A DNA stretch of 64,000 nucleotides from an uncultured Desulfuromonas sp. (GTDB taxonomy: Bacteria > Desulfobacterota > Desulfuromonadia > Desulfuromonadales > Desulfuromonadaceae). The position numbers were made by a program, and so were the translations under genes. The stretch covers positions 1,302,001 to 1,366,000 of the forward strand of contig NZ_OY787469.1 of NCBI RefSeq assembly GCF_963678835.1. The letters run 5' to 3'. How positions within the stretch are numbered: position 1 is the stretch's first letter; each line of letters begins with the position of its first letter. Below are positions 3,875-43,799 of this stretch, one piece after another. The notes under the pieces were generated by a model that did no database searches, was not told the origin of the DNA, and was given only the letters and a program-made list of their open reading frames with translations.

Positions 3875-4025
3875 CAGGCTGTTGCAAAACAGTCCGGCAG
3901 CCCAAGAACGGGCGGCCAAAATCAACAACTGATCCTCAACGACTTGATTTTGTGAGCAAGACGGAAACACTGTTTTCGGCTTGCGTCGTTGAGATGCCCC
4001 AAGATGGGATGTCTTCGACATCCTG
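3875..4025 (+). mobile_element. 152-bp MITE family 1, copy A (decayed)
   Basis: The element runs from CAGGCTGTTGCAAAACAG to ...CATCCTG, 151 bp, with the internal TTGATTTTGTGAGCAAGACGG block shared by all copies. The left flank is TTAA. It lies between the adhesin and the second Y1 element and has more changes than the other copies. Confidence 0.8.
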
Positions 4026-4052
4026 CCAACTTTTGCCGTGGAGGAGGCGCTA

Positions 4053-6593: not shown

Positions 6594-6787
6594 TGGCCGT
6601 TTGGTGGGGGCATTTTTATTCGGCCGCTTGATCCTCAATGATACCCCCTTTCCTGAGTATCCTGAATGGAATGTGGGGATTTTTTTTCTTAAGTTTGCAG
6701 ATTTTCTATTGATTCTAATGTTTTTGTCGTAACATTGTCAGACGGGCAAGCGCACTAATAACGTGTTAAGTTCCTTTTGGATGAAAT
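6594..6787 (+). other. Non-coding stretch before the first cassette-like gene
   Basis: The region is A/T-rich. Near its end it has CGTGTTAAGTTCC, which contains a match to the integron R' consensus GTTRRRY (GTTAAGT). It could be the 3' part of an attachment site, but no convincing paired arm was found. Otherwise nothing is recognised. Confidence 0.25.
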
Positions 6788-7105
6788 ATGAACCAGATTT
6801 CCAATACGCCAAAGCCTCCTTATTTTGCCGTAATTTTCACCTCACATCGCACTGCAGGTGATCAGGGCTATAGCGAGATGGCTCGTAGAATGGTTGCGTT
6901 AGCTTCGAAGCAGCCTGGGTTCCTTGGATTTGAATCAGCAAGAGAAGACGTCGGAATTACGGTATCGTATTGGTCTGACATGGACTCAATTCAAAACTGG
7001 AAAAACAACATTGACCACAAAATTGCTCAAAAATTGGGTCGAGAAAAGTGGTACTCATCGTTTAAAGTAAGAATTTCAAAAGTTGAAAAAGATTACGGCA
7101 TTTAA
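6788..7105 (+). CDS. Antibiotic biosynthesis monooxygenase (ABM)-fold protein
   Basis: This 105-residue single-domain protein has the ABM pattern: a beta strand (YFAVIFTSHR), a helix with MARRMVALASKQPGFLGFES, and the WSDMDSIQNWKNNIDHKIAQ helix. Members form ferredoxin-like dimers and include small oxygenases and heme-degrading enzymes; the substrate here is unknown. The gene is short, on the + strand, and followed immediately by an attC-like hairpin, as in an integron cassette. Confidence 0.75.
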   Translation: MNQISNTPKPPYFAVIFTSHRTAGDQGYSEMARRMVALASKQPGFLGFESAREDVGITVSYWSDMDSIQNWKNNIDHKIAQKLGREKWYSSFKVRISKVEKDYGI

Positions 7106-7168
7106 CAAAGGTATAAACACCGATGTTTTCACTGCGCTCAAAACGCGGGTCATGTCGGTGTTATGGCT
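7100..7168 (+). other. attC-like site 1
   Basis: Starting at the stop codon of the preceding gene, ATTTAAC fits the R'' consensus RYYYAAC. The arms AACACCGA and TCGGTGTT pair across a variable centre, and the site closes with GTTATGG. A MITE is inserted a few bases downstream, so the junction with the next gene is disturbed. Confidence 0.45.
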
Positions 7169-7175
7169 CCTATAA

Positions 7176-7328
7176 CAGGATGTTGAAAAAAGTCCCATCC
7201 GGGGCCTTTTTAATGACGCAAACCGAAAATGCGATTTCCGTCTCGCTTACAAAATCAAGGACTTGAAAACCTGTCCTTGATTTTGGCCGCCTGCCCATGG
7301 GCTCCACAGGCTGTTTTTTAACTGCCTG
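7176..7328 (-). mobile_element. 152-bp MITE family 1, copy B
   Basis: A 153-bp element runs CAGGATGTTGAAAAA...CCTG in the opposite orientation to copy A, with the shared central inverted repeat around CAAGGAC. The 4-base flanks are ATAA and ATAG, close to a target duplication. It separates an attC-like site from the next gene. Confidence 0.85.
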
Positions 7329-7342
7329 ATAGAGGTATCTGG

Positions 7343-7774
7343 ATGATCGAATATAAACATGCAGTAACATCTGATTTAGCCGAAATTGAGACGCTTCTAA
7401 CGTATTATGATTTACCGGCAAGTGACTGTTTTCTACATTTAGAAAACTTTGTTGTCGCATTCGCTGACGGTATGTTGGTGGGGGTAGGCGGTTTTGAAAG
7501 TTGCGGTAACTATGGTCTTGTGCGCTCTTTTGCTGTCTCACCGGAATTCAAAGGTCATGGCATCGCAAAGAGCCTATTTCAAATGGTCTACGATCTGGCG
7601 TTGGAACAAGGTAAGGAATCACTCTATCTACTTACCACCACCGCATCAGACTATTTTAAAAAGCTCGGTTTCTCAGAGTGTGTTCGCTCAAACTGCCCAG
7701 AGCCGATAACGTGTACCAAGCAGTTCTCTGAATTGTGCCCTGGCTCTGCGATTACAATGTTGCTTGCGCTATGA
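7343..7774 (+). CDS. GNAT acetyltransferase, ArsN2-like
   Basis: This 143-residue GNAT-fold protein has motif A in FAVSPEFKGHGIAKSL (acetyl-CoA binding, R/Q-x-x-G-x-G/A type). Its C-terminal signature YLLTTTASDYFKKLGF, then QFSELCPGSA, is characteristic of the ArsN2 group. Known relatives acetylate amino-group toxins such as arsenic-containing amino acids; the substrate here is an inference. AGAGG precedes the ATG. It is the second gene of the cassette-like block and is followed by a clear attC-like hairpin. Confidence 0.75.
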   Translation: MIEYKHAVTSDLAEIETLLTYYDLPASDCFLHLENFVVAFADGMLVGVGGFESCGNYGLVRSFAVSPEFKGHGIAKSLFQMVYDLALEQGKESLYLLTTTASDYFKKLGFSECVRSNCPEPITCTKQFSELCPGSAITMLLAL

Positions 7775-7782
7775 AAGTCCCA

Positions 7783-7837
7783 GCCATAACGAGCAAAGGC
7801 AGCGGATGTTACGCACCGCTGCTTTGAGCGTTAGCTC
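7783..7837 (+). other. attC-like site 2
   Basis: A 55-base imperfect palindrome. AACG-AGCAAAG-GCAGCGG pairs with CCGCTGC-TTTGA-GCGTT, leaving single extrahelical bases, and the site ends GTTAGCT. Size, arm pairing, bulged bases and position between two + strand genes fit an integron attC site. Confidence 0.65.
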
Positions 7838-7891
7838 TTAAATTATGATGATATTTATATGATGATATTTAATTCTGCAAATGGAGATCCA

Positions 7892-8233
7892 ATGCTTCTT
7901 GATTCAGTTCAAGGGCTTCGTGAGTTGCATAAGCAGTTTGAGGATTTCCTTTCTTCCTCTGCCGAGGAGGCTTCGTTTGGGGCCATCACAAACAGTGACC
8001 CCGCGCCATATGAAGAGCTGCTATGTGGGCTGCACGTAATGAAGAATGAGGGTTATAACGATCTCACATTCTCAGATGACAGGTGGCTTGTGCTGTCTGG
8101 CTCGCCAAGGGTCTTGTCTGACTTTAGTAAGAGTTTATTCGTTCAACATGACGGTGATCATAATCATTGGTATGGCAGTCCGGTCTCTCTAATTATTGAG
8201 GCAGATGGCTGGAGGGCTGGCAGTGAGGGCTAA
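7892..8233 (+). CDS. Small hypothetical protein in cassette-like block
   Basis: From the ATG at 7892 (GGAG five bases upstream) it encodes 113 residues; an in-frame ATG at 7859 has no ribosome site. It is acidic and soluble, with a C-terminal HDGDHNHWYGSPVSLIIEADGW segment rich in His and Asp. This faintly recalls small immunity proteins, but I do not recognise the family. An attC-like site begins at its stop codon. Confidence 0.6.
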   Translation: MLLDSVQGLRELHKQFEDFLSSSAEEASFGAITNSDPAPYEELLCGLHVMKNEGYNDLTFSDDRWLVLSGSPRVLSDFSKSLFVQHDGDHNHWYGSPVSLIIEADGWRAGSEG

Positions 8234-8299
8234 TCAGGTGCTCCAGTCGACCTAAAAAACGCTTCGCGCTTTTGGTCGGCAGAGCTGTTTCGTTAGGGG
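8228..8299 (+). other. attC-like site 3
   Basis: A 72-base imperfect palindrome starting at the stop codon of the preceding gene (GCTAATC). Arms around GCTCCAGTCGACC pair with GGTCGGCAGAGC, a CGCTTCGCGC mini-hairpin sits at the tip, and the site ends GTTAGGG, close to R' GTTRRRY. Confidence 0.6.
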
Positions 8300-8316
8300 C
8301 AACAAACGGAAGATCT

Positions 8317-9009
8317 ATGGAAGAAAATAAGTTTTTCAGGTACATCTGGCGTATTAACGGACTGATTTTATTGGTCGCTGGAGTCATGGCCATTGGCGTC
8401 TTAGCCTTTGCTGGATACCAGATCTACGCTAAAACTACTCGTGATAGAAACACCAGAAATATAGTCAATATTCAAGAAGACTCAGAACTCAAAGAGGAAT
8501 GGCGACTGGGCTATATGGCTGATATTCAGGGTACGTCTTATGTTATGGTTCCCCTGAACTCTGATCAAAGTTACGCACAATCTTATTACAGCAAGTCTTC
8601 GTCTTCTGCGAGAAACTATCTGTTTATAAATAGTAAGAATAATGAGCAACATTGGCTCTTGAAGAGCAATAAATATCTGATAGCCGATATGACGATGCTT
8701 TCTGAACATGGATATGGAGGCGAAGAGAGGAATATAAGAGCAATTCTTTACCAAGTCATAAAGAAGGACACAGATAAAGATAGTCGGCTCACAAACAAGG
8801 ATCTTAAAACGATATCAATTTCCCGCTCCGATGGCCGTGGATACAAAGAATTAATTCAAGGCGTTGATGTCTTTGTGGGCCAGCGCACTGTTGATGAGAA
8901 TACTTTGCTTATTGTTTACCAAAAACAAGGTGTGGGGTACTCAGCGAATGTTTCGCTTTCCAAGCTCGCTATATCCAATGAACAAGAACTACCCAAGGTC
9001 AGCCTCTAA
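8317..9009 (+). CDS. Hypothetical protein with N-terminal membrane anchor
   Basis: This 230-residue protein has one membrane segment near residues 13-33 (INGLILLVAGVMAIGVLAFAGY). A mostly hydrophilic C-terminal domain follows, with serine-rich (YYSKSSSSARNY) and charged stretches. A single-pass inner-membrane protein with a periplasmic domain is likely. No family is recognised. The ATG at 8317 follows GGAAG; the longer frame beginning in the attC-like site is unlikely. Fourth gene of the first cassette-like block. Confidence 0.6.
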   Translation: MEENKFFRYIWRINGLILLVAGVMAIGVLAFAGYQIYAKTTRDRNTRNIVNIQEDSELKEEWRLGYMADIQGTSYVMVPLNSDQSYAQSYYSKSSSSARNYLFINSKNNEQHWLLKSNKYLIADMTMLSEHGYGGEERNIRAILYQVIKKDTDKDSRLTNKDLKTISISRSDGRGYKELIQGVDVFVGQRTVDENTLLIVYQKQGVGYSANVSLSKLAISNEQELPKVSL

Positions 9010-9051
9010 CTAGGGTGCTTGGCAAGACCTGACCCTGCGGGATACTGTGAG

Positions 9052-9094
9052 GTTCGTGTGTCATTTCGCAATAATTACGAAATGACACACGAAC
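9052..9094. repeat. 17-bp perfect palindrome between convergent genes
   Basis: GTTCGTGTGTCATTTCG (9052-9068) and its exact inverse (9078-9094) enclose 9 bases. It lies between the 3' ends of the convergent genes at 9009 and 9149, where a bidirectional terminator would be, but lacks a T-run. It could also be the tip of a large attC-like site (TAAC at 9008, CGTTATGG near 9129). Confidence 0.7.
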
Positions 9095-9148
9095 TTTGAA
9101 CACTTCCTTCGCCGGTGAATTTCACGTTATGGCGAATAAAGAACACTA

Positions 9149-10585
9149 TTAGTATTTGTCGAAATTATCATCATCCAGCGATATGAAGCTGCGGGAACCG
9201 CTTTCACTTTCAAATTGTTTCACCGGGCTTTCTAATGGCGCGTCAGGTGCCGTAACCGTTCCTTCCGGTTTGGTTTGTTCGTCGCCAATATCTTCTGTAA
9301 CGGAAATTCCTTCGGTAAGTTTTAATAGCCGATTAACCTGAAATTTCAGTTCCTCTGAAGCGGAAGCGTTTTCTTCGGAAATTGACGCGTTTTGCTGGAC
9401 AACGGTATTGACTTGAGACAAACCGTTGCTGATTTCCTTCATACTGGAGTTCTGCTCATTTGAACTGCCGGAGATCTCGCTGACGAGATCGTTCATTTTT
9501 TCCATTGAGGAGACAATTTCATTCAAAATCAAGGCTGTCTCATTGGCGTTTTGCACTCCGGCTTCAACGCCCTTAATCGATTTTTCAATTAATTGAGTGG
9601 TATCCTGGGCCGCCTCACCGCTACGCCCAGCTAAGGCGCGAACTTCTTCAGCGACAACCGCGAACCCTTTGCCGTACTTTCCTGCTCTGGCGGCTTCGAT
9701 CGCGGCGTTTAGCGCGAGTAAATTTGTCTGGAAGGCAATTTCATCAATGACTTTAATTACTTTGCTCACCTCAGAACTGGTGTCATTTATATTTCTTACG
9801 GATTCGACCAAAACTTCCATTTGCTGATTACCTCGTTGAACGGTTTCTCTGGTCTCATTGGATAAATTTTTGGCCTGTTCCGCGTTCTCGCTGTTCATTC
9901 TTGTTTGATTTTCAACTTCATTTAATGACGCGCTGATCTCCTCGATCGATGCCGCCTGCTCTGTCGTCCCGGCGGATAAAGTCTGCGCGGAATTTGTCAG
10001 TTCATTTGAGCCAGACGCGACACTGGCCGCTGCTTGGCGAGCGCTTTTCAACAATTGACTCAATTGTTTTTGGGCGTGAATATTTGTGACAATCTCCGCG
10101 TGGCCGATCTTTTTGCCTTTTCGGTTTGTCAGATAATGTGTATTTACGCGAAAATCCATGTCCCACTGATTAAAGAATGATTTGGGCTTTCCTTTGCGCA
10201 GGCAGATGACTCCACAGTTATCAGTGTTACAGATATTCGCTCCCCAATTACTGCATTGTTGACCAAGTACCTCGGAACGTTTTTTCTTGAGCAAATCTTC
10301 AACTGTTTTATTGACGAATGTCCAGTTCATATCCATGTCGGTTATGGACAGGGGATTCTCCCAAAGATCGATGATTTGCTCATACCAGTGATATTTCTCC
10401 AGCACCTGATTTTCCACTTTGACGGTTAAGATCAGAGTAAAGATTAATACTCCTGTTAACGCCAAGAGTAAGATGGTCGATACATTGATACCCATACTTG
10501 TTGATTCGTCGGTGAAGGAAACGAAATATACACATAGTATGGACACTACGATGCCGATCACCTGAGATACTTTTATTAATTTCAT
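9149..10585 (-). CDS. Methyl-accepting chemotaxis protein with cytoplasmic PAS domain
   Basis: This 478-residue receptor has two membrane segments close together (about 8-24 and 35-55) with almost no periplasmic loop, so it senses inside the cell. A PAS domain (about 75-170) carries a cluster of four cysteines within [20 protein letters not shown] (about 110-130) that could bind a metal or cofactor. The C-terminal signalling domain contains the conserved hairpin tip ([20 protein letters not shown]). No methylation-receptor tether pentapeptide is seen at the C-terminus. AGGAAG precedes the ATG. It stands alone as a transcription unit. Confidence 0.9.
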
Positions 10586-10616
10586 ATCATCTTCCTTAAT
10601 TAACCTCTGATTCAGA

Positions 10617-11032
10617 TACCATAAAGTTGAAAATGAATGTGACGAAAGCCCTTGGATTTAATGACTTAATGTATGCCATTTTACAATGAAAAACATCAGT
10701 ATCATAACAGATCTTTTGGGTTTATCATCAATTTTTTGTTGCCGATTTTGTTTTTGAGGACGTTTAAGTGCCCAATTTTGTCGGGAATTATTATTTTCAA
10801 CCCGTTTTTTTAGAAACACGGAGTCAACAGCTAGCGGGTGGCAAGATATGAAATGTCGAAGGAGGGGGCGTTTGGAAGGTGCTCTTGGGGCATTGTCAGG
10901 GGGTGGACTGGCTCGATTTGCAGATATACCGCAGAAACATCAGGATGGGTGTCGGCAGGAGGAGAAGACATTCAGCCTGGCAATCTATCTCTATCGCCGA
11001 GATCTTCATGAGCATGTGATGCATGTGATCTT
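10617..11032. other. Intergenic region with no recognised gene
   Basis: About 415 bases between the chemoreceptor start and the AraC gene end. A + strand frame at 10848-11066 has basic, repetitive composition and runs into the AraC gene, so it is not supported. No clear terminator or repeat was found. Confidence 0.5.
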
Positions 11033-11845
11033 TCAGGCCTCCTGTTCGACTTTTTCGAAGAATTGATTGCGAAATTCAGATGGTGACACACCATACATTC
11101 TTTTAAATTGCCGATAAAAGTTAGGTAAGCTTGAAAACCCGCTCTGAAATGCTGCCTCGGCAACACCTTCACCTGTTGATGAAAGAATGATCCCGGCCTT
11201 TTGGAGGCGTCGGATATTGATATATTCAACAATGCTTGTATTCGTATAACTTCTAAATTCGCGTGTAAGCAAGCTTCGAGACAGTCCGAACCGCAACGCG
11301 ATCTCGTTTAAGTCTCCCGGGTCCTCTGGCTCTTTGTCAAGCCACTCACATATTTTTCTTATTGTATTCAGATGATTAGATCCTGAAGCCATCTCAAGGT
11401 CTCGTTTGTTTCCCATGCATGAGGCTAAGAGTAAACCAATGACGGCCCATGCAATGTGCACCTCACCGGGATCTTGATCTCCGAGACCATCCGGAATCAT
11501 CTCGACTAACTCCCATGGCAGAGATGTTTGTTCAGGAAAGTCAGTAAACGAGTATTCAGGTTTATTCAGATTATACAGAAACGATGATTGAGCTGCCGAC
11601 AAATGAGTCGCTATATCCGTAGGCGTAAAGCAGACAAATTTAAAATCTGCCGTTTCATTCTTTCGAAAAACAAACTTGTGACGTGCTTTTGACGCAATCA
11701 GGATCGCCCTCCGACTTACCAATTCAATATTTTCTTGATCGAGAATCAACAGTCCCGAGCCGGAACGACAGAGAATAAGTTCAAAAACGTCGTGAGAATG
11801 CCATTCAGAAGAATCCGACAGGGTCGTGGTTACGCTCCAAAACAT
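11033..11845 (-). CDS. AraC-family transcriptional regulator
   Basis: This 270-residue protein has an N-terminal cupin-like sensor domain (about 1-150) and a C-terminal AraC double helix-turn-helix (about 170-265). The second domain ends with the family signature GFSSLPNFYRQFKRMYGVSPSEFR. The ligand is unknown. It is divergent from the PAS-like gene at 11996 across a 150-bp gap, so regulation of that gene and of itself is plausible. Confidence 0.9.
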   Translation of the reverse strand: MFWSVTTTLSDSSEWHSHDVFELILCRSGSGLLILDQENIELVSRRAILIASKARHKFVFRKNETADFKFVCFTPTDIATHLSAAQSSFLYNLNKPEYSFTDFPEQTSLPWELVEMIPDGLGDQDPGEVHIAWAVIGLLLASCMGNKRDLEMASGSNHLNTIRKICEWLDKEPEDPGDLNEIALRFGLSRSLLTREFRSYTNTSIVEYINIRRLQKAGIILSSTGEGVAEAAFQSGFSSLPNFYRQFKRMYGVSPSEFRNQFFEKVEQEA

Positions 11846-11995
11846 TTTATGTCCAATTGATTATGATTAATATCCGATACGATAAGATAAAAGCGATAAA
11901 GCCTTGTACGATGCTTTTCACCGTAGCATGAGTTGCCCCGTATGGCAATGCGTGCAGAGAATAACAACGTCGTTGAATCTGATGGAGGATGAAAA

Positions 11996-12349
11996 ATGGT
12001 TGATGAAAGTGTGATTGATGCTTTTCAGATGATGTGGGGGAAATTTCCGGAAGGCGTGATGTTGGTTGACAAAAGTCGAACTGTCCTTGCTGTGAATGCT
12101 GCTTGTGCAACCTCCGGTTTAGAGGCAGGGATGGTCTGCTCTAAGCTCGGCTCGCCAGAATCCCATAGAGGTTGCCTTGCAAATCATGCGCTGGCTAATC
12201 AGAAAGCAAAATTTAAAAAAATCAGCATGAACGGAAAAGAGTTTATCAGTTTCTGGGTCCCTGTTGTTGGGCAAGATAATATTTTCCTTCATTTCACTGT
12301 TGGTATGACGGTTGACTACGGAAACTGTGAAGAAACGATTGAGAACTAG
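11996..12349 (+). CDS. Small PAS-like protein
   Basis: This 117-residue protein begins like a PAS domain (FPEGVMLVDKSRTVLAVNAAC). It has cysteines in a spacing reminiscent of redox-sensing PAS proteins (NAAC...MVCSK...HRGCLANH) and ends in beta strands. No output domain is present. It is divergent from an AraC regulator. Its stop codon TAG is formed by the left end of a MITE, so the original protein may have been slightly longer. GGAGG (11984-11988) precedes the ATG by 7 bases. Confidence 0.6.
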   Translation: MVDESVIDAFQMMWGKFPEGVMLVDKSRTVLAVNAACATSGLEAGMVCSKLGSPESHRGCLANHALANQKAKFKKISMNGKEFISFWVPVVGQDNIFLHFTVGMTVDYGNCEETIEN

Positions 12350-12494
12350 TGCTTTGTCAATGCTGAAAAATCGAGGGAATGGCACCGCATCGTGCCATTC
12401 ACACCAGGCGCGAAATCGCCGAAGTGGCCACTGCGCGCAGTGGGCATGGTGCGAGGCGAAGCCAGACCCGAAGATTTCGTGTTGTCAGAGCACT
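12348..12494 (+). mobile_element. MITE family 2 (IS630-related), copy 1
   Basis: A roughly 147-bp element from AGTGCTTTGTCAATGCTG to GTTGTCAGAGCACT. The interior has the inverted repeat GAATGGCAC...GTGCCATTC and the sequence CGAAGCCAGACCCGAAGATT, shared with copies at 16971 and 26217. The left flank gives TA(G), as expected for IS630-type TA targets. Confidence 0.8.
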
Positions 12495-12507
12495 GGACTT
12501 GAACACC

Positions 12508-12639
12508 GTCAATTTTGTCATTGGAGTGACGACCTGGTAGGAGCGAATTTATTCGCGAATTGTTCTGGTCATTGATCCTTATCCTGATGAGAATTCGCGG
12601 CTGAAGCCGCTCCTACAAGAGACAATTTCAATGGTGCTG
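12508..12639. repeat. BIME-like paired REP repeat, copy 1
   Basis: Two inverted REP-like units, TAGGAGCGAATTTATTCGCG and its partner GCGGCTGAAGCCGCTCCTAC, are separated by about 30 bases and framed by GTCAATTTTGTC and GACAATTTCAATG. A second copy in the same arrangement lies at 34114-34243. The core resembles REP elements described in pseudomonads. Confidence 0.8.
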
Positions 12640-12643
12640 AAGC

Positions 12644-12692
12644 ACGAGCAGGCTGTTGAAAAAACGCCTGCTCGTTTTGATATTTTTTTTTG
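12644..12692 (+). terminator. Terminator-like hairpin with T-run
   Basis: CGAGCAGGC (12644-12652) pairs with GCCTGCTCG (12666-12674), followed by TTTT and a longer T-run. It could end + strand transcription from the PAS-like gene. Confidence 0.65.
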
Positions 12693-12793
12693 GGCGGAAA
12701 TATAAGACAAATTTGATAAAAGCCGAGCAGGGGGGCAGGTCCTCTTATTCGAGAAAATGGTGTCATTGAAGGTCTTTGCGACAAGGCGATTGT

Positions 12794-13414
12794 TCACTGA
12801 TCCATGATCGAGATAAACTGCGGAAAAAAATTTGCCAGAAATGTCAGGCAGCCCTGAACTCCTTCTTCATAACTCAGATGTCCCGGAGCTATCAGGTATT
12901 GAACATGAATGCCATCAATCATGCTGGTCAACATCACGGCAATAGCTCGCAAGCTCATTCCATTAATCACTTCCCGACCATTTGCCAATGCTCTCATAAC
13001 CTCTTCAATGGACTCTTCATAGGCGAGATCACTTTCAGTAAAGAGTTCTAGATACGTCTTTCTGTGCGGCGCGACCCCCCAGTAAGCAACTAAAACTGCT
13101 AAGGCTTTGGGATCAGCGATGGGTTGACTCAGTAGAACTTTGATCATTGATGCCAGACGATTTTCAGGGGCCGCAACGGATTCTGTGAGGGCTGAGCGCC
13201 AAGCCATTTCATACTTTTTATACAGCATGCGCAAGGCCTCAAGCATTAACTGATCTTTGGTCTCAAAATGAAAGCTGCACAGCCCTCGTGAGAGTCCCGC
13301 ATAGCGAGATACCTTCGCAAATGTCACGCTATCCAAACCTTCTGAGGCAATAATGTCAATTGTGGCATCCAGTAGTTTGCGTCGACTCTTAAGTTTTTGC
13401 TCTGCACGTGTCAT
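12794..13414 (-). CDS. TetR-family regulator (BetI-like)
   Basis: This 206-residue protein has an N-terminal TetR helix-turn-helix (ATIDIIASEGLDSVTFAKVSRYAG, then SFHFETKDQL) and a BetI-type C-terminal ligand domain. It is divergent from the aminotransferase/SDR operon starting at 13787, with a long palindrome (13515-13558) between them, so it probably represses that operon. The inducer is unknown. Confidence 0.9.
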   Translation of the reverse strand: MTRAEQKLKSRRKLLDATIDIIASEGLDSVTFAKVSRYAGLSRGLCSFHFETKDQLMLEALRMLYKKYEMAWRSALTESVAAPENRLASMIKVLLSQPIADPKALAVLVAYWGVAPHRKTYLELFTESDLAYEESIEEVMRALANGREVINGMSLRAIAVMLTSMIDGIHVQYLIAPGHLSYEEGVQGCLTFLANFFPQFISIMDQ

Positions 13415-13514
13415 CTCAAAAGACCTTTTATCTAAAGCATGAAATCAGTAAATCATTGCACGTTTCTGTGACCAACCCAACGGTGTTGTGAAAAACATAT
13501 CCCTCATTCTTAGT

Positions 13515-13558
13515 GGTCGTGTCAAATTCAAAATATACAATTTGAACTTGACACGACC
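13515..13558. promoter_or_regulatory. Long palindrome, candidate operator or terminator
   Basis: GGTCGTGTCAA (13515-13525) is exactly mirrored at 13548-13558, with an inner ATTCAAA/TTTGAA pair. It lies about 100 bp upstream of the TetR start and 230 bp before the aminotransferase gene. Position and symmetry suit a TetR-type operator; a hairpin role is the alternative. Confidence 0.45.
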
Positions 13559-13614
13559 CACGGATATATCCAATATTTATTGGCTGGCCAGTCAGCCAGT
13601 GAATGCCAATGTAG

Positions 13615-13747
13615 CAGGATGTTGAAAACGTCCCGTCCGAGGATTTTCAACGACGCAAGCCGAAAATGCGATTTCCGTCTTGTTGAAACCTGTACTTGAT
13701 TTTTGGCGCCTGTCCATGGGCTCCACAGTCTGTTTTTCAACAGCCTG
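13615..13747 (-). mobile_element. 152-bp MITE family 1, copy C (shortened)
   Basis: The element runs CAGGATGTTGAAAA...TTTTTCAACAGCCTG, 133 bp, missing part of the central inverted repeat. The flanks are GTAG and ATAG. It sits between the palindrome and the aminotransferase gene, ending 40 bp before the ATG, so it may have displaced or replaced the promoter. Confidence 0.85.
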
Positions 13748-13786
13748 ATAGGTCACAAACCACCAATTGCCTTGAGGATTAACGTT

Positions 13787-15187: not shown

Positions 15188-15188
15188 A

Positions 15189-15995
15189 ATGAGTGTTTCA
15201 AAGATCAACCCGAACCGTTTTACGGGACGATGTGCCCTGATAACCGGTTGCGGCAGCAATTCTGGTATCGGTTTTGCCACAGCTGAACTGCTGCTGCGAA
15301 GTGGTGCTAAAGTGGCAATTACCTCCACTACTGATCGTATCTTCGAACGTAAAGAAGAACTGGATAAACTGGGAGAAGTCGCTGCATTTGTCGCAGATCT
15401 CGTTGATTTGGGTCAGGTCGATACCTTGGTAAAAGGTGCCATGACAGCATTTAAGCAGATCGACATCCTGGTGAACAATGCCGGCATGTCACAGGTAGGC
15501 GACTCAGAAGATATTACCCCTCTGTCAAAAATGCTTCATAGAAAATGGCACACGGCAATCGATCGTAATCTTACCACCTGTTTTAACATTACCAGGGCCC
15601 TGCTGCCTGAAATGGTCAAAAATGGCTATGGTCGTGTCGTAAACGTTTCTTCGGTAACCGGACCGCTTGTCAGCAATCCAGGGGAATCCGCTTATAGCGC
15701 TGCTAAAGCCGCAATGGTTGGGATGAGTAAGAGTGTCGCTATCGAAGTTGGCAAATCAGGTGTTACCATTAACAATGTGGCTCCCGGTTGGATCGGCACG
15801 GACTCCAGCCTCGAAGAGGAGCGGGTCGCAGCACAGAACACACCAATGGGCCGTGCCGGATCACCTCGAGAAGTCGCCGATTTAATAGCTTTTTTATCTT
15901 CAGGTGAAGCAACGTACATCACCGGCCAAACCCTTGTGATCGACGGAGGCAATACGCTGCAGGAATATAAAGGGCCGAGTGAGCTTTACTACTGA
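15189..15995 (+). CDS. Short-chain dehydrogenase/reductase
   Basis: This 268-residue Rossmann enzyme has a nucleotide-binding TGCGSNSGIG (near 16-25), NNAG, the catalytic Ser in VVNVSSVTG, and YSAAK. The C-terminal PGW...GRAGSPREVADLIAFL...GQTLVIDGG block completes the FabG-like pattern. The substrate is unknown; neighbours suggest oxidation or reduction of a compound made or used by the aminotransferase. The start at 15189 has GAGGG upstream and follows the previous stop directly. Confidence 0.85.
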   Translation: MSVSKINPNRFTGRCALITGCGSNSGIGFATAELLLRSGAKVAITSTTDRIFERKEELDKLGEVAAFVADLVDLGQVDTLVKGAMTAFKQIDILVNNAGMSQVGDSEDITPLSKMLHRKWHTAIDRNLTTCFNITRALLPEMVKNGYGRVVNVSSVTGPLVSNPGESAYSAAKAAMVGMSKSVAIEVGKSGVTINNVAPGWIGTDSSLEEERVAAQNTPMGRAGSPREVADLIAFLSSGEATYITGQTLVIDGGNTLQEYKGPSELYY

Positions 15996-16006
15996 ACTAA
16001 GGGAAA

Positions 16007-16954
16007 ATGATGTTGATAAATACCAATTGGGCTGAAAAAGTTGTGCTGATCACAGGGGCCACTGGTGGAATTGGCTCTGCGGCAGCCAAGGCATTTAAAC
16101 AAGAGAGTGCTCGTCTAGCAGGCTGTTGAAAAACAGCCTGTGAAGCCCATGGACGGGCGACAAAAATCAAGGACATGTTTTCAAGTGCTTGATTTTGTGA
16201 GCAAGACGGAAATCGCATTTTCGGCTTGCGTCGTTGAAAAGGCCCCGGATGGGACTTTTTCAACACCCTGCTAGTACTGGCAGATATTAATGTGGAAGCA
16301 CTTGAAACAATGACGACTGCATTTAAAGACGCGGGAGATAGTGTTGCATCCGTTGTGTGTGATGTTTCAAATGTTGCCGACTGCGAAGCAGCCGTTGCAG
16401 CCGCTATTAAAGCTTATGGCCGTCTAGATATCGTTGTGAATGCTGCTGGGGTAATAGTTAAAGGTGATCCAACTAAGGTGACAGAAAAACAATGGGACCA
16501 GGTAATCGATATAAACCTGAAAGGGACCTTCTTCATGTGCCGTAGTGCAATTCCACATTTAAAGAAAACCAAGGGGTGTATCGTTAATATCTCTTCTGAT
16601 GCAGGAATCCAGGGACAAGTCGGCCATACTGTCTACTGCGCCAGTAAGGGTGGGGTTGCCAATATGACCCGTGCTTTGGCACTCGACCTGGCCAGCGACC
16701 TGGTGCGAGTCAATGCCGTCTGCCCCAGCGACGTCATGACGCCAATGCTTGAACATGAAGCAAAGACCAGTGGAATGCCAACAGAAGAATATCTCAGAGA
16801 TAATCTAAAGTCCTACCCCCAGGGAGAAAACTCCAGATACCTGCAGCCAGATGATATTGCTGATTTGATCCTCTACCTGAGTAGCGACTCGGCCAGAGGA
16901 ATCACCGGCGCAGCCATCCCTATCGACTATGGCACCAGCGCTGGACTTTGGTAA
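16007..16954 (+). pseudogene. Short-chain dehydrogenase split by a MITE
   Basis: Codons from ATG 16007 encode a normal Rossmann start (VVLITGATGGIGSAAAKAF, then SARL). The MITE at 16119-16270 follows, with a stop (TGA) five codons after the junction. The frame resumes exactly at 16275 (VLADINVEAL) and continues through NAAGVI, NISSDAG, YCASK and a C-terminal GAAIPIDYG. Removing 156 bases (element plus one CTAG) restores a continuous gene of about 263 codons. The downstream part has an in-frame GTG at 16292 but lacks the nucleotide-binding loop, so it is probably inactive. Confidence 0.9.
16119..16270 (+). mobile_element. 152-bp MITE family 1 inside an SDR gene, with CTAG duplication
   Basis: The element runs CAGGCTGTTGAAAAACAG...TTTTTCAACACCCTG. 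It is flanked on both sides by CTAG (16115-16118, 16271-16274). Because the host reading frame is known, this copy fixes the element ends and a 4-bp target duplication. The interior carries the inverted pair AAATCAAGGAC / TTGATTT and no coding frame. Confidence 0.95.
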
Positions 16955-16970
16955 GACCTGCTCTCTACTT

Positions 16971-17130
16971 AGTGCTCTGTCAATGCTGAAAATTCGTGTA
17001 AATGGCACGGCATCGTGCCATTCACACAAGGCGCGAAATCGCCGAAGTGGCCATTCCACTTCAAGATTTTGCAACGCAGTGGGAATGGTGCGAGGCGAAG
17101 CCAGACCCGAAGATTTCGTGTTGTCAGAGC
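16971..17130 (+). mobile_element. MITE family 2 (IS630-related), copy 2
   Basis: The element starts AGTGCTCTGTCAATGCTG after a T (TA target) and runs about 160 bp to TTGTCAGAGC. The last bases of the right end are lost where it abuts a permease fragment. The interior inverted repeat GGAATGG...CCATTCC is intact. Confidence 0.8.
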
Positions 17131-17140
17131 CTTTTACGTT

Positions 17141-17393
17141 CCCGGCATCCATCCGGTGGTCAGCATCGCGCTGGTCAGCCCCTTTCTGGCGCCTGTCGTT
17201 GCCAACCCCAGCCAGCTCGCCTTTCTCTATCTCACGGTGTGGGGCATTGTCACGGGAGTCAGCCCATTATCAGGCGTTGGCTTGGCCGTTGTCGGTCGCT
17301 ATCACATTCCCAGCCGCACAGTATAAAAATGCAACTGAATTATATGGTGCTTGGCTTTGCTCCGGTCTGGTCAACATGCTCTGGTTTGGGTGA
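17141..17393 (+). pseudogene. 3' fragment of a permease like that at 5295-6593
   Basis: The sequence matches the last roughly 85 codons of the upstream permease at high identity (GIHPVVSIALVSPFLAPV is kept). It has a 1-base loss giving TAA within the SRTVLKM region and a small deletion near MVLMWLC. The left end is cut at the MITE. Only a relic remains. Confidence 0.85.
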
Positions 17394-17582
17394 TAGCAGT
17401 TCAGACGGGACCATGTCCGTTGCAACGCGCAATGCCAATATGGTGACCTTTGTCGATTCTTTCGGATAAAGCCTTGATTATTAATTGTGGTTTAAGTAGG
17501 TTGGATTTTGTTGATGCCGAGGGTGAGGCCCAGCCCATAGTGCTTTCCACCTTTGCTTCATAATATCGCGATAAGTGGAAAA
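17394..17582. other. Intergenic region, no gene recognised
   Basis: No supported frame. GATAAGTGGAAAATATT near 17571 opens the inverted-repeat block that follows. Confidence 0.4.
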
Positions 17583-17764
17583 TATTGAAATGGCAAACAT
17601 GGAAAATTGGTTTCCATGTTTAGCGTTAAATATTTCAATAGGTGGAAAATTTTCCACCTATCAGCACTGATAAGTGGACCGCTCCGCGCTCCACTTATCG
17701 GGGCCGGGCTGTCGTACCTCACACCATTGAGAGGTTCCGCGCTACGCGCTCCACCTATCAATGG
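17583..17764. repeat. Cluster of nested inverted repeats
   Basis: Four symmetric structures follow one another. TATTGAAAT...ATTTCAATA (17583-17640) encloses AAACATGGAAA/TTTCCATGTTT. A perfect 24-bp palindrome lies at 17638-17661. GATAAGTGGA/TCCACTTATC spans 17669-17699. CCATTGA/TCAATGG spans 17724-17764 with a CGCGCTACGCGC tip. GGGGCCGGGCTGT near 17699 is mirrored 150 bases away at 17838-17850. The CGC-rich tips resemble attC terminal structures, so damaged attachment sites are one reading. Confidence 0.6.
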
Positions 17765-17796
17765 CGTTCGAGCCGACTGCGGTTCTCGGCCCGTAA

Positions 17797-17858
17797 AATA
17801 TAAGCCCATTTTCCGGGCCTGCGAGCCTTGCGGCTCAACAGCCCGGCCCCGTTATATT
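17797..17858 (+). other. attC-like site 4
   Basis: Outer arms AATATAA and TTATATT, middle arms CCGGGCCTG and CAGCCCGG, and inner GAGCC/GGCTC form a long bulged hairpin ending CCGTTATATT six bases before the next start codon. The shape fits attC; the end sequence departs from GTTRRRY. Confidence 0.45.
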
Positions 17859-17863
17859 TGCCT

Positions 17864-18250
17864 ATGAAAGAAATTCATCAAAGCAGATTTAGACCGGTTT
17901 TGGTTGCCATATTCTGGTGCTGGTTGCTCCTTTCCACTCCTGAATGGAAGGTCGCCCCATCTGATAGTGTTATTTTCCCAGAGATAGTTGCAATAATCCT
18001 TCTTTTGTCTTTGCTTGTCTTTAAAATTAAAGAAAAAATTTCGATTACCAGTAATTACTTAATTTTAGACCTTTGTAAAAATAGTACAAAAATAAATCTG
18101 CACACAATTCAAGGAATTGATTTTGAAGATTGCTTTAATATCCTCAATATAGTTACTAGTGACACACATATGTCAATAAATATTGCCCAGTTTGATAGCC
18201 GAAAAGTTGAAAAATTGTTTAGTGAAAGTGGGCTATATAAGACAAAATGA
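17864..18250 (+). CDS. Small hypothetical membrane protein in cassette-like block
   Basis: This 128-residue protein has two hydrophobic N-terminal segments (VLVAIFWCWLLL and IVAIILLLSLLVF) and a short C-terminal soluble part. The gene is clearly richer in A/T than the chromosomal genes to the right. The longer frame upstream begins inside the attC-like hairpin and was rejected. No family recognised. Confidence 0.6.
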   Translation: MKEIHQSRFRPVLVAIFWCWLLLSTPEWKVAPSDSVIFPEIVAIILLLSLLVFKIKEKISITSNYLILDLCKNSTKINLHTIQGIDFEDCFNILNIVTSDTHMSINIAQFDSRKVEKLFSESGLYKTK

Positions 18251-18340
18251 ATATAACCAGGCAAATGCACTCGGACGTTTAAAAAGCGCCGCTCGTTCCT
18301 CGCTCTGCTTTTTTACGCCGGTGATTTGCGACGTTAGGTT
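18251..18340 (+). other. attC-like site 5
   Basis: The site begins at the stop of the preceding gene (ATATAAC). Arms GCAAATGCACTCGG and CCGGTGATTTGC pair with bulged bases, a GCGCCGCTCG tip sits in the middle, and the 3' end ACGTTAGGT contains an exact GTTRRRY match (GTTAGGT). Confidence 0.7.
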
Positions 18341-18349
18341 TAAAAGAAA

Positions 18350-19306
18350 ATGAAAAGAGCTAATTTGAGAAAAACCGTTACGATACTAATGCTTTTTTTA
18401 TTTTTGTTGGCGTCGTTGACCTACTCTTCATACTCTTATTCTAAGAGAAGCGCAGAGAAATTGGTGGGAGAAACACTGCAATATTTTTCTTTATCACAAG
18501 TTAGGATTACCCTCGTGCCATTCCACAGAAAATATCCTGTTTGGATGTTCCGATTTTCATTTCCAGATAGTTTTGACGAAAAATTTGAAATTTACACATC
18601 TATATTTGGGAATATCGAAATGACAAACCCTAGAGATATAGAGCATAGGCTTCGAGAATTTGAGAAAATTGTACCTCATCCTTATTCCAAAGAAGCCATA
18701 GAACAAGCAAGATTGGAGCAAATTGAAAGCAAAAGGAAAGCATACGAAAAAGGGTTAATGCTTTTTGAGGAAAGTTCTTTCAAAAACGCATTCAAAAAAC
18801 ACTTTTTAATTTCTGAAATTGAAGCTCCAGAGAACTCTAGTACGTATGGAGTTTATTTTTTTACACTACCTGAGTGGCAAGCTTCCCTATCTCCCCAAAA
18901 AAGCTATCCAATTCCTTTTGAGGTGAAGGCAGTATTTCCGATCAAAAATAATAGAATTGAAGCATCGATAACACCTGAAGAGATAGAAAAAGCCATTGAC
19001 AAGTGCTTATCCCACCCACACGTATTGAATTACATTTCAAACAATCCAACTCCCGGAATTAGGCTCCGCATTACTGGTGATCGGCTCCATTGGAACACTC
19101 CTGAACTCCAAGAATTTCTTTCTGAGCTGAAAGGGAGCAGAGCAGAAGAAAAAGAAATACGAAACTGGGCAAGGGTAATCATCGACGGCAAAGAGCATCA
19201 ATACTTCTCTTTCTATTTGAATAGCATTTCTGGTGAACTAATTTATACCGATACTGCTGCAAATGGCTCTAAGCCTTTATTGGTAACTATGGAAGCAACT
19301 AATTGA
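18350..19306 (+). CDS. Hypothetical exported or anchored protein in cassette-like block
   Basis: This 318-residue protein has an N-terminal hydrophobic segment (about 10-28, LMLFLFLLASLTYSSYSYS) that could be a signal peptide or anchor. A charged region with probable coiled-coil character follows (about 115-145), then a mixed alpha/beta C-terminal domain. It is A/T-rich. AAAAGAAA precedes the ATG. I do not recognise the family. Confidence 0.6.
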   Translation: MKRANLRKTVTILMLFLFLLASLTYSSYSYSKRSAEKLVGETLQYFSLSQVRITLVPFHRKYPVWMFRFSFPDSFDEKFEIYTSIFGNIEMTNPRDIEHRLREFEKIVPHPYSKEAIEQARLEQIESKRKAYEKGLMLFEESSFKNAFKKHFLISEIEAPENSSTYGVYFFTLPEWQASLSPQKSYPIPFEVKAVFPIKNNRIEASITPEEIEKAIDKCLSHPHVLNYISNNPTPGIRLRITGDRLHWNTPELQEFLSELKGSRAEEKEIRNWARVIIDGKEHQYFSFYLNSISGELIYTDTAANGSKPLLVTMEATN

Positions 19307-19319
19307 AATAAAATATAAA

Positions 19320-19401
19320 ACACATAGCAAAACGTTCAACGTCGCTTCTTCGTCGCTTGGACGCGGCAAACAGCGCCGCGCCGGTTAACTCTACGTTAGG
19401 A
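19320..19401 (+). other. attC-like site 6
   Basis: A GC-rich palindromic stretch with CGTCGCTTCTTCGTCGC and GGCAAACAGCGCCGCGCCGG tips ends ACGTTAGGA, which departs from GTTRRRY only at the last base. It lies between two + strand small genes. Confidence 0.55.
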
Positions 19402-19428
19402 AATACAGCATGTTGGAACAGTGTAAAA

Positions 19429-19797
19429 ATGTTTATACGCTTTGAAGCAAAATTGTTTAATCAAAAAACTAAGAGCAACATTGGGGTTTTTGGCGCAATC
19501 ACGGAATTAATAGAAAACGAGAAAATCAGTCCAAAACTCAAATTGGAAGCTCAAAATATCCTTTCTTGGTTCAGTGAAAACTTGCTTTCTCCTAGGCCTC
19601 TTCGGATTGAAGGCGATGAGTATTATGGGACATGTTGGTTCCGTATCACCGCATTGGATCATGTACAAAGGACTCAAAGAATATGTGCCATTCTTAACAA
19701 AATTGGCGTGCAAACAAGAAAGCGTTCATCAGGACAATTCGATGAGATTATTTATTCAGACGAATATCAGATTGTCTCTAGGACACTAAATCCCTAA
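19429..19797 (+). CDS. Small hypothetical protein in cassette-like block
   Basis: This 122-residue soluble protein has the features ITELIENEKISPKLKLEAQN (helical) and a C-terminal alpha/beta part with YYGTCWFRITALDH. The longer frame begins in the preceding attC-like site, so the ATG at 19429 is preferred; the ribosome site is weak. The stop TAA forms the start of an attC-like arm (CCCTAACG) that is interrupted by a Y1 element. Family unknown. Confidence 0.5.
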   Translation: MFIRFEAKLFNQKTKSNIGVFGAITELIENEKISPKLKLEAQNILSWFSENLLSPRPLRIEGDEYYGTCWFRITALDHVQRTQRICAILNKIGVQTRKRSSGQFDEIIYSDEYQIVSRTLNP

Positions 19798-19804
19798 CGA
19801 ATAA

Positions 19805-20148
19805 GTGCACTATGGGGACGTAGTTGATATTTTGACATTCTATGCTAAACTCCCACCATGCCACGCCAACCACGCATAGACATATCCGGCCTTTTGCAGC
19901 ATGTGATCATAAGAGGCATTGAACGCAGGAATATCTTTATCTCCGATGCTGATCGCAGAGACTTTGTGCGCCGTCTGTGCACTATGGGGACGTAGTTGAT
20001 ATTTTGACATTCTATGCTAAACTCCCACCATGCCACGCCAACCACGCATAGACATATCCGGCCTTTTGCAGCATGTGATCATAAGAGGCATTGAACGCAG
20101 GAATATCTTTATCTCCGATGCTGATCGCAGAGACTTTGTGCGCCGTCT
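19805..20148 (+). repeat. 172-bp tandem duplication of a Y1 element's 5' end
   Basis: Bases 19805-19976 are repeated at 19977-20148 with essentially no change. The unit begins at the element's left end (GTGCACTATGGGGACG) and stops 40 codons into the transposase gene. Because 172 is not a multiple of 3, the first copy codes only a short dead frame from ATG 19858. Confidence 0.95.
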
Positions 20149-20998
20149 GGTACTATTGCTTCAGGAGACGAAAACCCTCTGCTATGCATGGACGTTGCTT
20201 GATAACCATGTTCACCTGCTCCTGATGCCAACCCAAGCCCCCCTTGCTTCCATGATGCGGCGCTTACTGACCGGCTATGCCGTGTCATTCAACCGGCGGC
20301 ACAATCGTTCCGGCCATCTGTTTCAGAACCGTTACAAATCGATCGTGTGTGATGAGGAGGTATATCTGCTGGAGCTGGTGCGCTATATCCACCTCAACCC
20401 CGTGCGAGCCGGTAAGGTCGCAGGACTAGACGCGTTGGCGAATTATCCCTGGAGTGGCCATCAGCAACTGTTGGGCAAGGGGGAATACGGCCTTGTGGCT
20501 GAAAAAGAGGTTTTATCCCTGTTCGGGCGCACCCCAAAAGTCGCGCGTAAAGCGTATGTGCAATTTTTGTATGACGGCCTGCAGCAAGATATGCCGTGCT
20601 TGTCAACAGGAGGACGGCAAACCAGCCAAACCATGGACGCATCATTGACCGATCAGGATTATTATGATGAACGTATCCTCGGCGGCGGTTTTTTTGTTGA
20701 ACGCATTATGAACAGGGTGACACCGAATGAGGCCAGACATGTGTCGCTTGAAGAGATAATCAAATCCGTGGCTGATTATTATGAAATGGAAACAGAGCGG
20801 TTGTGCTGGCCCAGCAAGGTGCGCACAATTGCCGATGCCCGAGCGGTGATTTGCTTCTTAGCAACGCGTCGCTACAGGATAACCGGGAGAGAGGTTGGAG
20901 ACAAATTGAGGTATACGCCATCGGCAGTGAGCAAAGCGGCTCAACGCGGGTTGAAGATATACGACGTCGATGACCATTTGCAGGATAGTCTTGGTTAA
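20030..20998 (+). CDS. Y1/HUH transposase, second type
   Basis: This 322-residue protein starts MPRQPRIDISGLLQHVIIRG. The HUH motif is the HVH of DNHVHLLL near residue 63, and the tyrosine region is TGYAVSFNRRH. NPVRAGKV follows. The C-terminal region (SLEEIIKSVADYYEME...DARAVICFLATRR...YTPSAVSKAAQRG) again resembles DnaA domain IV, though diverged from the proteins at 282 and 4109. The gene is intact. It belongs to a different subfamily with different end sequences. Confidence 0.9.
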   Translation: MPRQPRIDISGLLQHVIIRGIERRNIFISDADRRDFVRRLVLLLQETKTLCYAWTLLDNHVHLLLMPTQAPLASMMRRLLTGYAVSFNRRHNRSGHLFQNRYKSIVCDEEVYLLELVRYIHLNPVRAGKVAGLDALANYPWSGHQQLLGKGEYGLVAEKEVLSLFGRTPKVARKAYVQFLYDGLQQDMPCLSTGGRQTSQTMDASLTDQDYYDERILGGGFFVERIMNRVTPNEARHVSLEEIIKSVADYYEMETERLCWPSKVRTIADARAVICFLATRRYRITGREVGDKLRYTPSAVSKAAQRGLKIYDVDDHLQDSLG

Positions 20999-21040
20999 AT
21001 ATCAATAAATCAACAACGTCCCCGACATTCTTGACCCACA

Positions 21041-21083
21041 AAAGCTGACTCTTTTACGGTCGGCTAACCCTTAACGTTAGCTT
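21041..21083 (+). other. Right arm of an attC-like site split by the Y1 element
   Basis: CGGCTAACCCTTAACGTTAGCT contains GTTAGCT, the same closing sequence as site 2. The matching left arm CCCTAACGA lies at 19793-19800 on the other side of the Y1 element. Together they read as one interrupted attachment site. Confidence 0.5.
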
Positions 21084-21102
21084 AGTCATTAAAAGGAACA
21101 AT

Positions 21103-21687
21103 ATGGATCCTCTCGCACTTGCTGGAGCATTTGCAACAATCGTCGGCCTCCTCTCCAATTTCAAGGCAGAACGTTCCGGGTCTGACCTATCTGACTTTAT
21201 GCAGTGGCTACACGAACAGCATCAGGAACATATAGCTCAAGCAATTTCCCAGAACAAAGCCCTTTCAACAGAATTATCTACACTCCTTGCGACAAAGCAT
21301 GACGAGTTAGTTACAAAAATTACCGCGATAAATGACCAAATTTCCTGTGTCGCAATGCAAATTGACGGATTCTCTGGCCTTGCGAAGATATTACGCCCCT
21401 CTCCTGCGCTATCAAACCAAGCGAAGTCAATACTCAGGCAAATAGTCGAGTCTGGAGCAAAGTTTGTCATGGAACACAAATTAGGTACCGGTAACCCAGC
21501 AGAGTTCATCTTTATTGATGGGGCCACAGGAAAGGTTCAATACGATGAACCACAGTTTATAAACGAAGATTTTGAGACACTTGTTGCTATGGGCCTGTTG
21601 CGACTTGAGCTTGCAAGTAAAGGTTCTAGGAGGTTCATACCAAGCAGAGCAGGTGCCGAATATGTAAAAGCTAAAAATAATGGCTAA
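21103..21687 (+). CDS. Hypothetical protein in cassette-like block
   Basis: This 194-residue protein has a short hydrophobic start (LALAGAFATIVGLLSNF) and a long helical middle (about 30-105) of probable coiled coil. The C-terminal domain looks like a winged helix (ILRQIVESGAKFVM...LVAMGLLRLE...SRRFIPSRAGAEYV). AAAAGGAAC precedes the ATG. GGCTAAC at the stop could start another attC arm, but the following sequence is a REP-like hairpin. Function unknown. Confidence 0.6.
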   Translation: MDPLALAGAFATIVGLLSNFKAERSGSDLSDFMQWLHEQHQEHIAQAISQNKALSTELSTLLATKHDELVTKITAINDQISCVAMQIDGFSGLAKILRPSPALSNQAKSILRQIVESGAKFVMEHKLGTGNPAEFIFIDGATGKVQYDEPQFINEDFETLVAMGLLRLELASKGSRRFIPSRAGAEYVKAKNNG

Positions 21688-21690
21688 CAG

Positions 21691-21752
21691 AAGAGGCAAA
21701 GAGGTCAAGTCTACGGTTGACGTAAGAACAGTAGGGCAGGCTTGATTTGTGA
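21691..21752 (+). repeat. Direct repeat with REP-like hairpin, left copy
   Basis: The roughly 60 bases beginning AAGAGG contain the hairpin GTCAAGTCTACGGTTGAC (21704-21721), a variant of the ends of the Y1 elements at 229 and 4053. The block recurs at 22686-22740 in the same orientation on the other side of the gene at 21920. Confidence 0.75.
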
Positions 21753-21919
21753 AGAAAAAGGTGACGTTATTTCCTTAAGTATTTCGTCACTGGTGACATG
21801 GAGGGTCGGATAGATTGCCCCGCTTGCAGTTGGAAGGAAAACACAGGGGCTTTTCTAAAAAAGCAATAAAGCAAGAAGTTCCCTTTGAGGTGTACATATC
21901 AAGGTTATGAGTGGAAGAT

Positions 21920-22685: not shown

Positions 22686-22740
22686 AGAGGAAGTGGGGTC
22701 TACGATTGACGTAAGAGCAGAGGGGGCAGGCCTTGAATTG
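22686..22740 (+). repeat. Direct repeat with decayed REP-like hairpin, right copy
   Basis: It aligns with 21691-21752 (AAGAGG...GGGTC-TACG-ATTGACGTAAGA...GGGCAGG). The hairpin has lost part of its left arm, so this copy is more decayed. Confidence 0.7.
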
Positions 22741-42070: not shown

Positions 42071-42086
42071 CGGGAAAAATCCCGTA

Positions 42087-43659: not shown

Positions 43660-43799
43660 AAGCAATTCCCTGATCCAGTGAAAATCAAATTAAAACAGCA
43701 TGACAGTCGTTGTCTTCCGCAAGACACTGCGGATTCTTTTTTTCCTATCGACAGAATTGTCCAGGGACTTTATCTGTTTTTATTGGCCGGCATCTTTAG

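What the first reader, a model, noticed from the sequence alone, without database searches (positions are those of the whole stretch)
6788..21700. Two blocks of integron-like gene cassettes without an integrase
Short + strand genes at 6788, 7343, 7892 and 8317, and again at 17864, 18350, 19429 and 21103, are separated by imperfect palindromes. Each starts at or near a stop codon, has bulged arms and (in sites 2, 3, 5, 6 and the split site) ends in GTTAG. The genes are unrelated, mostly unknown, and include ABM and ArsN2-like proteins, a typical cassette mix. No integrase gene is in the window, so this would be a CALIN (attC cluster lacking integrase). The unnamed cassette genes are the most likely place for undescribed functions.
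Basis: partly seen in the sequence, partly recalled or inferred. Interest (0 to 1): 0.8.

Follow-up and report, generated by a model that had tools for sequence, protein, structure and literature searches.

The report
Two integrons that lost their integrase
This stretch holds the remains of two bacterial gene-collecting devices (integrons) that kept captured genes and a docking site but no longer have the enzyme that moved them; such remains are a known kind, but related genomes carry unusually many of them with the docking site still recognisable.

Summary
Two are strong, two moderate, one weak, one only the ends of a split site. The window has no integron integrase; the genome has three, one with an internal stop.

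"CALIN" fits by definition but misses how the blocks begin. Each starts with an attI-like stretch. Block 1 also keeps a short piece of the 5' end of an intI of the C2:394 type; block 2 has the leader/attI of the C1:3478 type, with no intI coding match found. Both follow copies of the same permease 3' end. Between permease and malonyl-CoA decarboxylase, three related species carry different integron remains, and the block 1 intI piece ends at the same nucleotide in G002.

Orphan attI copies recur in the genus: I counted 20, of which 15 have an attC within 1 kb downstream. The one-contig genome G002 has six and no integrase over the cut-off. Decayed chromosomal integrons are known; the number of attI-headed arrays and the tandem of two lineages are unusual. 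Six of eight cassette proteins remain unnamed.

The parts
5295..6593 (+). permease-like membrane protein gene (432 aa, no Pfam or NCBIfam match) that borders block 1; name 'permease' is by eye
   Evidence: 98, 91 and 92% identical in G008, G002, G007
6619..6675 (-). piece of the 5' end of an intI frame of the C2:394 type (start codon uncertain)
   Evidence: 88% identical over 57 bp to L028 11784-11840; nt 24-80 of that frame, ending at the same nt 80 as the copy in G002
6676..6770 (+). shortened type A attI-like stretch; core ACTAATAACGTGTTA at 6754-6768
   Evidence: alignment with L028 and G002 (core match by eye)
6788..7105 (+). cassette 1, ABM-domain protein
   Evidence: PF03992 28.4 bits, cut-off 23.1
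7100..7164 (+). attC of cassette 1
   Evidence: R2 20.2 bits, R1 21.5
7173..7333 (.). dispersed repeat of about 160 bp between cassettes 1 and 2
   Evidence: relatives in the window at 3872, 13612, 16114, 43794, 47441
7343..7774 (+). cassette 2, ArsN2-like acetyltransferase
   Evidence: NF040501 136.6 bits, cut-off 125
7784..7834 (+). attC of cassette 2
   Evidence: R2 28.8 bits
7892..8233 (+). cassette 3, 113 aa, unnamed
   Evidence: no family over cut-off
8228..8296 (+). weak attC of cassette 3
   Evidence: R2 12.0 bits, E 1.3; not listed by R1
8317..9009 (+). cassette 4, 230 aa, unnamed; no attC hit behind it
17143..17401 (+). second copy of the permease 3' end
   Evidence: 88% over 264 columns to 6338-6601
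17570..17668 (+). type B leader/attI-like stretch, ending at CACT before the G at 17669
   Evidence: 17570-17656 84% to L027 8514-8427; alignment
17669..17859 (+). gene-less unit with a palindrome (17796-17859); recurs in other arrays
   Evidence: 97.8% over 186 bp to L137 2561-2376, where it follows an attC, and also behind the attI at L137 8396-8065
17864..18250 (+). cassette 5, 128 aa, unnamed
18251..18337 (+). attC of cassette 5
   Evidence: R2 45.9 bits, E 7.3e-9
18350..19306 (+). cassette 6, 318 aa, unnamed
19322..19399 (+). attC of cassette 6
   Evidence: R2 16.8 bits, E 0.089
19429..19797 (+). cassette 7, 122 aa, unnamed
19791..21080 (+). attC of cassette 7 split by an insertion; Y1 transposase gene 20030-20998, left end partly doubled
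   Evidence: ends by eye, R2 11.0 bits at 21062-21080, PF01797, 98.9% doubling of 181 bp
21103..21687 (+). cassette 8, 194 aa, unnamed; a 39% homolog elsewhere lies in an attC array
22856..24322 (-). malonyl-CoA decarboxylase gene, right border of the slot
   Evidence: PF05292 347 bits; synteny

Best explanation
The two blocks are decayed chromosomal integrons. Each once had intI, attI and a cassette array; intI was lost and attI and cassettes stayed. Block 1 descends from an integron like that at C2:394 (type A), block 2 from one like that at C1:3478 (type B). They stand in tandem because two versions of the same permease-next locus, seen singly in G002 (type A) and G007 (type B), came together in this genome. 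Shown: attC sites, cassette genes, attI homology, an intI piece in block 1, its end shared with G002, no intI nearby. Inferred: capture of the cassettes by IntI at attI; the joining of two versions; any present expression from the leader; that the arrays are frozen unless an IntI from elsewhere in the genome acts on them.
For: Six best attC hits of the window all in the blocks and on one strand. No integron integrase in the window, three elsewhere. Block 1: 88% over 57 bp to the intI 5' end of C2:394, and 90% over 200 bp between that locus and the G002 copy behind the same permease; both pieces end at intI nt 80. Block 2: 84% over 88 bp to the leader/attI of C1:3478 and 89% over 250 bp to the place behind the permease in G007. 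Copies agree up to GTTA and then differ (identities). Permease and malonyl-CoA decarboxylase border different integron remains in G002, G007 and G008. At G002 416 kb nt 1-519 and the last 30 nt of intI remain, an internal deletion. 15 of 20 orphan attI copies have an attC within 1 kb downstream.
Against: Two of the six attC hits have E above 1. No intI coding match was found for block 2, and only 2 of 9 type B copies have one. The intI start codon of the type A frame is uncertain (candidate ATG at nt 16 and 64); if nt 64 is the start, block 1 keeps only about six codons. Block 1 attI is shortened. 5 of 20 orphan copies lack an attC within 1 kb, among them the G002 copy in this very slot. No promoter above chance was found.
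Confidence: 0.85

Rival explanations
1. Integrase-less arrays served in trans: the orphan attI loci are not dead but satellites that an intact IntI of the same genome still reads.
For: Two IntI frames without internal stop in this genome. The attI end is the best conserved part among orphan copies: 0.89 against 0.80 and 0.73 in six type A copies, 0.84 in the last 20 bp of seven type B copies. A gene-less unit is 97.8% identical over 186 bp in block 2 and in a G002 array, while the permease region is 86.5% identical between the two genomes, so units moved after the species split.
Against: G002 has no integron integrase over the cut-off and still has six orphan copies. The window attI copies are shortened (block 1) or altered at the crossover (block 2). 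Ordinary gene transfer would also explain the shared unit.
Confidence: 0.1
2. CALIN made by insertion of cassettes at secondary, non-attI sites by an integrase elsewhere.
For: Known as an alternative from the Xanthomonas paper's mention of attG sites (PMC12444791, passages). IntI genes exist elsewhere.
Against: Both blocks are headed by attI-like stretches and block 1 by an intI piece.
Confidence: 0.04
3. The palindromes are chance or ordinary dispersed repeats, not attC.
For: Several dispersed repeats in the window; two weak scores.
Against: 45.9 and 28.8 bits from a model without sites of this genome, and the six best hits all in the blocks.
Confidence: 0.01

Closest known systems
[quoted passage not shown]
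   Same: At least two attC sites without a neighbouring intI; CALINs are there proposed to be degraded integrons
   Different: Here each block also has an attI-like head; that paper says attI sites outside class 1 are not detected by the program, so such heads would not be reported
Xanthomonas chromosomal integrons behind ilvD (PMC12444791, passages read)
   Same: One conserved chromosomal place; intI often deleted or truncated; arrays retained; further CALINs elsewhere
   Different: Here attI of two lineages stand in tandem at one place, and attI-headed integrase-less loci are many per genome
Integron loss in Treponema (PMC3607928, passages read)
   Same: attC sites kept at the syntenic place after loss of intI
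   Different: One locus, and attI was not analysed in the passages seen

Membership tests
[quoted passage not shown]
   Block 1: 28.8 and 20.2 bits plus a weak third; block 2: 45.9 and 16.8 bits plus split ends
CALIN | no integron integrase nearby | tested here: met
   TIGR02249 and PF00589 have no match in the window; nearest IntI 2.15 Mb along the contig, or 1.53 Mb the other way if it is circular
Complete integron | intI gene next to attI | tested here: not met
   Only a 57-bp match to the intI 5' end in block 1, none in block 2
Complete integron | attI site | tested here: inconclusive
   Homologous to stretches beside resident intI genes, ending at the crossover in relatives, but shortened or altered in the window; function untested
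Complete integron | cassettes of one gene plus attC in one orientation | tested here: met
   Eight + strand genes, + strand attC hits; the last gene of each block lacks a recognisable attC
Complete integron | cassette promoter Pc | tested here: inconclusive
   One + strand promoter-like site in the C2:394 leader, not above chance; none on + in the window leaders
attC site | R''/R' and L''/L' pairing with extrahelical bases | tested here: met
   Alignments to the model for 18251, 7784 and, with mismatches, 7100 and 19322
Functional integron | cassette excision or capture | not testable with these tools
   needs a recombination assay

The most novel reading that the evidence does not exclude
The genus runs a dispersed integron system: many attI-headed cassette arrays without their own integrase, of two attI types, kept as satellites that one or two resident integrases load and shuffle in trans, with attI conserved by that use while the local intI genes are lost again and again.
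Probability: 0.1. Interest if true: 0.75.

Novelty: new member of a known kind. Interest (0 to 1): 0.45.

Why it matters
The origin of CALINs is mostly inferred. Here intI pieces, attI heads and a shared deletion end let the decay be followed across related species, and a one-contig genome (G002) has six attI-headed loci without an integrase over the cut-off. It gives sets of natural attI sites of two lineages outside class 1, and makes it testable whether integrase-less arrays are served in trans. The cargo adds six proteins without a named family.

Tried and rejected
A strict R''/R' pattern scan found none of the sites and gave two other places. A looser arm scan found one of the sites (18251) among three + strand window hits and served to collect training sites. 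A first training alignment was dropped because two attC subtypes were out of register. PADLOC gave one match for nine proteins, at E 0.02, and PHROGs only acetyltransferases for cassette 2 below 0.05. Plasmid searches: no match for cassettes 3, 6 and 7, one for cassette 8, 199 records for cassette 2; cassettes 1, 4 and 5 were not searched there. A 23-bp stretch repeated on both sides of the gene at 21911 was considered as another kind of cassette border; it has only two copies in the genome and was not pursued. The doubled permease end was considered as the attachment site of an island; 88% identity over 264 columns looks rather like a diverged version. Of the paper searches, searches were usable; one search returned unrelated papers because 'atti' matches 'attitude'. 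I make no claim that anything is absent from print.

Full report
Setting.

attC test. IntegronFinder's model was not on hand, so I built one. IntI genes of relatives were found with TIGR02249 and their surroundings fetched. attC candidates were picked by arm pairing, and 22 sites from relatives and one plasmid, none from this genome, gave model R1. R1 over the whole window, filters off, lists seven hits up to E 10: 25.3 bits at 7784, 21.5 at 7100, 18.7 at 18262, 12.5 at 21062, then 11.9, 11.4 and 9.8 bits outside the named sites. As a yardstick R1 also finds, weakly, a site in a class 1 integron (L082, 19.1 bits). From 59 R1 matches at E up to 0.02 in 19 loci I built R2. In the whole genome both models find attC beside resident IntI genes, R2 beside all three, and clusters without IntI near C1 867 kb, 929-945 kb and 3364-3367 kb. 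These lists score only the 150 best candidates per genome and are lower bounds.

Integrases. PF00589 and TIGR02249 find nothing in the window. Three integron integrases lie elsewhere: C1:3478575-3479522 (453 bits), C2:535434-536369 (447 bits) and C2:394483-395424 (371 bits, one TGA inside).

Head of block 1. Window 6619-6675 is 88% identical to L028 11784-11840, which lies in the 5' end of the intI frame of the C2:394 integron. The corresponding stretch in G002, right behind the same permease, is 90% identical to that locus over 200 bp, up to the GTTA where cassettes begin. Both pieces end at nt 80 of the intI frame, so they probably share one deletion. The frame is counted from the longest open start; candidate ATG codons lie at nt 16 and 64, so the coding part kept may be as short as six codons. 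Behind it the window is shortened and keeps, by eye, ACTAATAACGTGTTA against ACTAATAACTTGTTA.

Head of block 2. Window 17570-17656 is 84% identical to the leader/attI of the C1:3478 integron, and 17413-17661 is 89% identical to the place behind the permease in G007. No intI coding match was found. At 17669 begins a gene-less unit of about 190 bp. It is 97.8% identical over 186 bp to a stretch inside a G002 array (L137 2561-2376), where it follows an attC hit; a copy also follows the type B attI of that array, and two partial copies lie in another array of this genome (L138). The permease region is 86.5% identical between the two genomes, so this unit moved after they split.

The slot. The permease and malonyl-CoA decarboxylase (PF05292) border the place in this genome and in G002, G007 and G008, the 3 of 14 other genomes searched that have the permease. 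Between them G007 has a type B head and two attC hits; G008 two attC hits; G002 a type A head and no attC hit. This genome has a type A block, about 8 kb of other genes, a second permease 3' end (88% identical to the first) and a type B block. I infer that two versions of the locus came together.

Orphan attI in the genus. Searches of 10 genomes, this one included, with the two attI regions matched 5 (type A) and 6 (type B) of 10. I fetched 20 regions and counted 20 copies without an intact intI beside them, 11 type A and 9 type B, the window's two, L090 and L092 included. Short partial matches were left out: L144, L145, L146, G001:C157, and those inside the arrays of L027 and L028. 15 of 20 have an attC hit within 1 kb downstream on the same strand. 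Of the others, L132 is at a contig end, L133a has a weak hit at 2.5 kb, L138 the first at 8.6 kb, and L090 and L140 none. By blastn 11 of 11 type A copies keep an intI 5' piece of 57 to 519 nt, and 2 of 9 type B copies have an intI match. At G002 416 kb the last 30 nt of intI remain too, an internal deletion. Beside L133a lies a tyrosine recombinase 27% identical to integron integrases, which is not over the integron cut-off.

Conservation. Mean pairwise identity among six type A copies is 0.80 (intI piece and leader), 0.73 (spacer), 0.89 (last 45 bp of attI) and 0.32 (first 30 bp of the cassette) (L132, L135, L136, L149 and the window left out). Among seven type B copies it is 0.28 (left of the intI start), 0.71 (leader), 0.73 (last 60 bp), 0.84 (last 20 bp) and 0.27 (cassette) (L143 and the window left out). 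The fall at GTTA is what different cassettes joined to one attI would give.

G002. It is one contig, 100% complete by the table, with no TIGR02249 match over the cut-off. It has six of the 20 copies, five with an attC within 1 kb. Of its 16 attC hits at E up to 0.05, I count 13 downstream of an attI copy; of 20 in G007, 11 (counted by hand).

Cargo. Cassette 1 has an ABM domain and cassette 2 matches ArsN2. The other six match no Pfam or NCBIfam family over a cut-off. Cassette 8 has homologs in 2 of 135 other genomes searched of the order. One (39% identical, L151) lies among three attC hits, one next to the gene. The other (L152), and one in Variovorax (L129), showed no attC. So cassette 8 is probably of cassette origin although no attC follows it here.

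Reading. The blocks meet the definition of CALIN. Their heads show a likely origin: loss of intI from two lineages of resident integrons. That CALINs are degraded integrons has been proposed (PMC9024848), and lost or truncated intI with kept arrays is described for Xanthomonas (PMC12444791) and Treponema (PMC3607928); I saw passages of each. I file this as a new member of a known kind. Unusual are the many attI-headed, integrase-less loci, the tandem of two lineages and the conserved attI end. A recombination test would decide between dead remains and arrays served in trans.

Noticed in passing
L029 8985-10382; L028 10481-11863: Integron integrases with a long N-terminal extension: the C2:535 protein (466 aa) matches the SAM-like domain twice; several relatives have frames of 430-500 aa.
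   Followed up: partly
L028 13734-13775; L027 2573-2616: The last 42-44 bp of attI occur again inside the cassette arrays beside the resident intI genes, like the partial attI cassettes named in the abstract listing of PMC12901181.
   Followed up: no
282-1262, 4109-5089, 20030-20998: Three Y1-type transposase genes with a DnaA-C-like domain; the third splits an attC.
   Followed up: partly
21709-21731 and 22698-22720: A 23-bp stretch repeated on both sides of the unnamed gene 21911-22684; only these two copies in the genome.
   Followed up: partly
1586-3298: YadA-type trimeric autotransporter between two Y1 transposase genes.
   Followed up: no
42082-42182: TPP riboswitch on the - strand.
   Followed up: no
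3872-4026, 7173-7333, 13612-13751, 16114-16273, 43794-43952, 47441-47595: Dispersed repeat of about 160 bp in six copies in the window, 68-89% alike.
   Followed up: no
L133 about 9307-10176: A tyrosine recombinase gene beside an orphan type A attI in G007, 27% identical to integron integrases.
   Followed up: no
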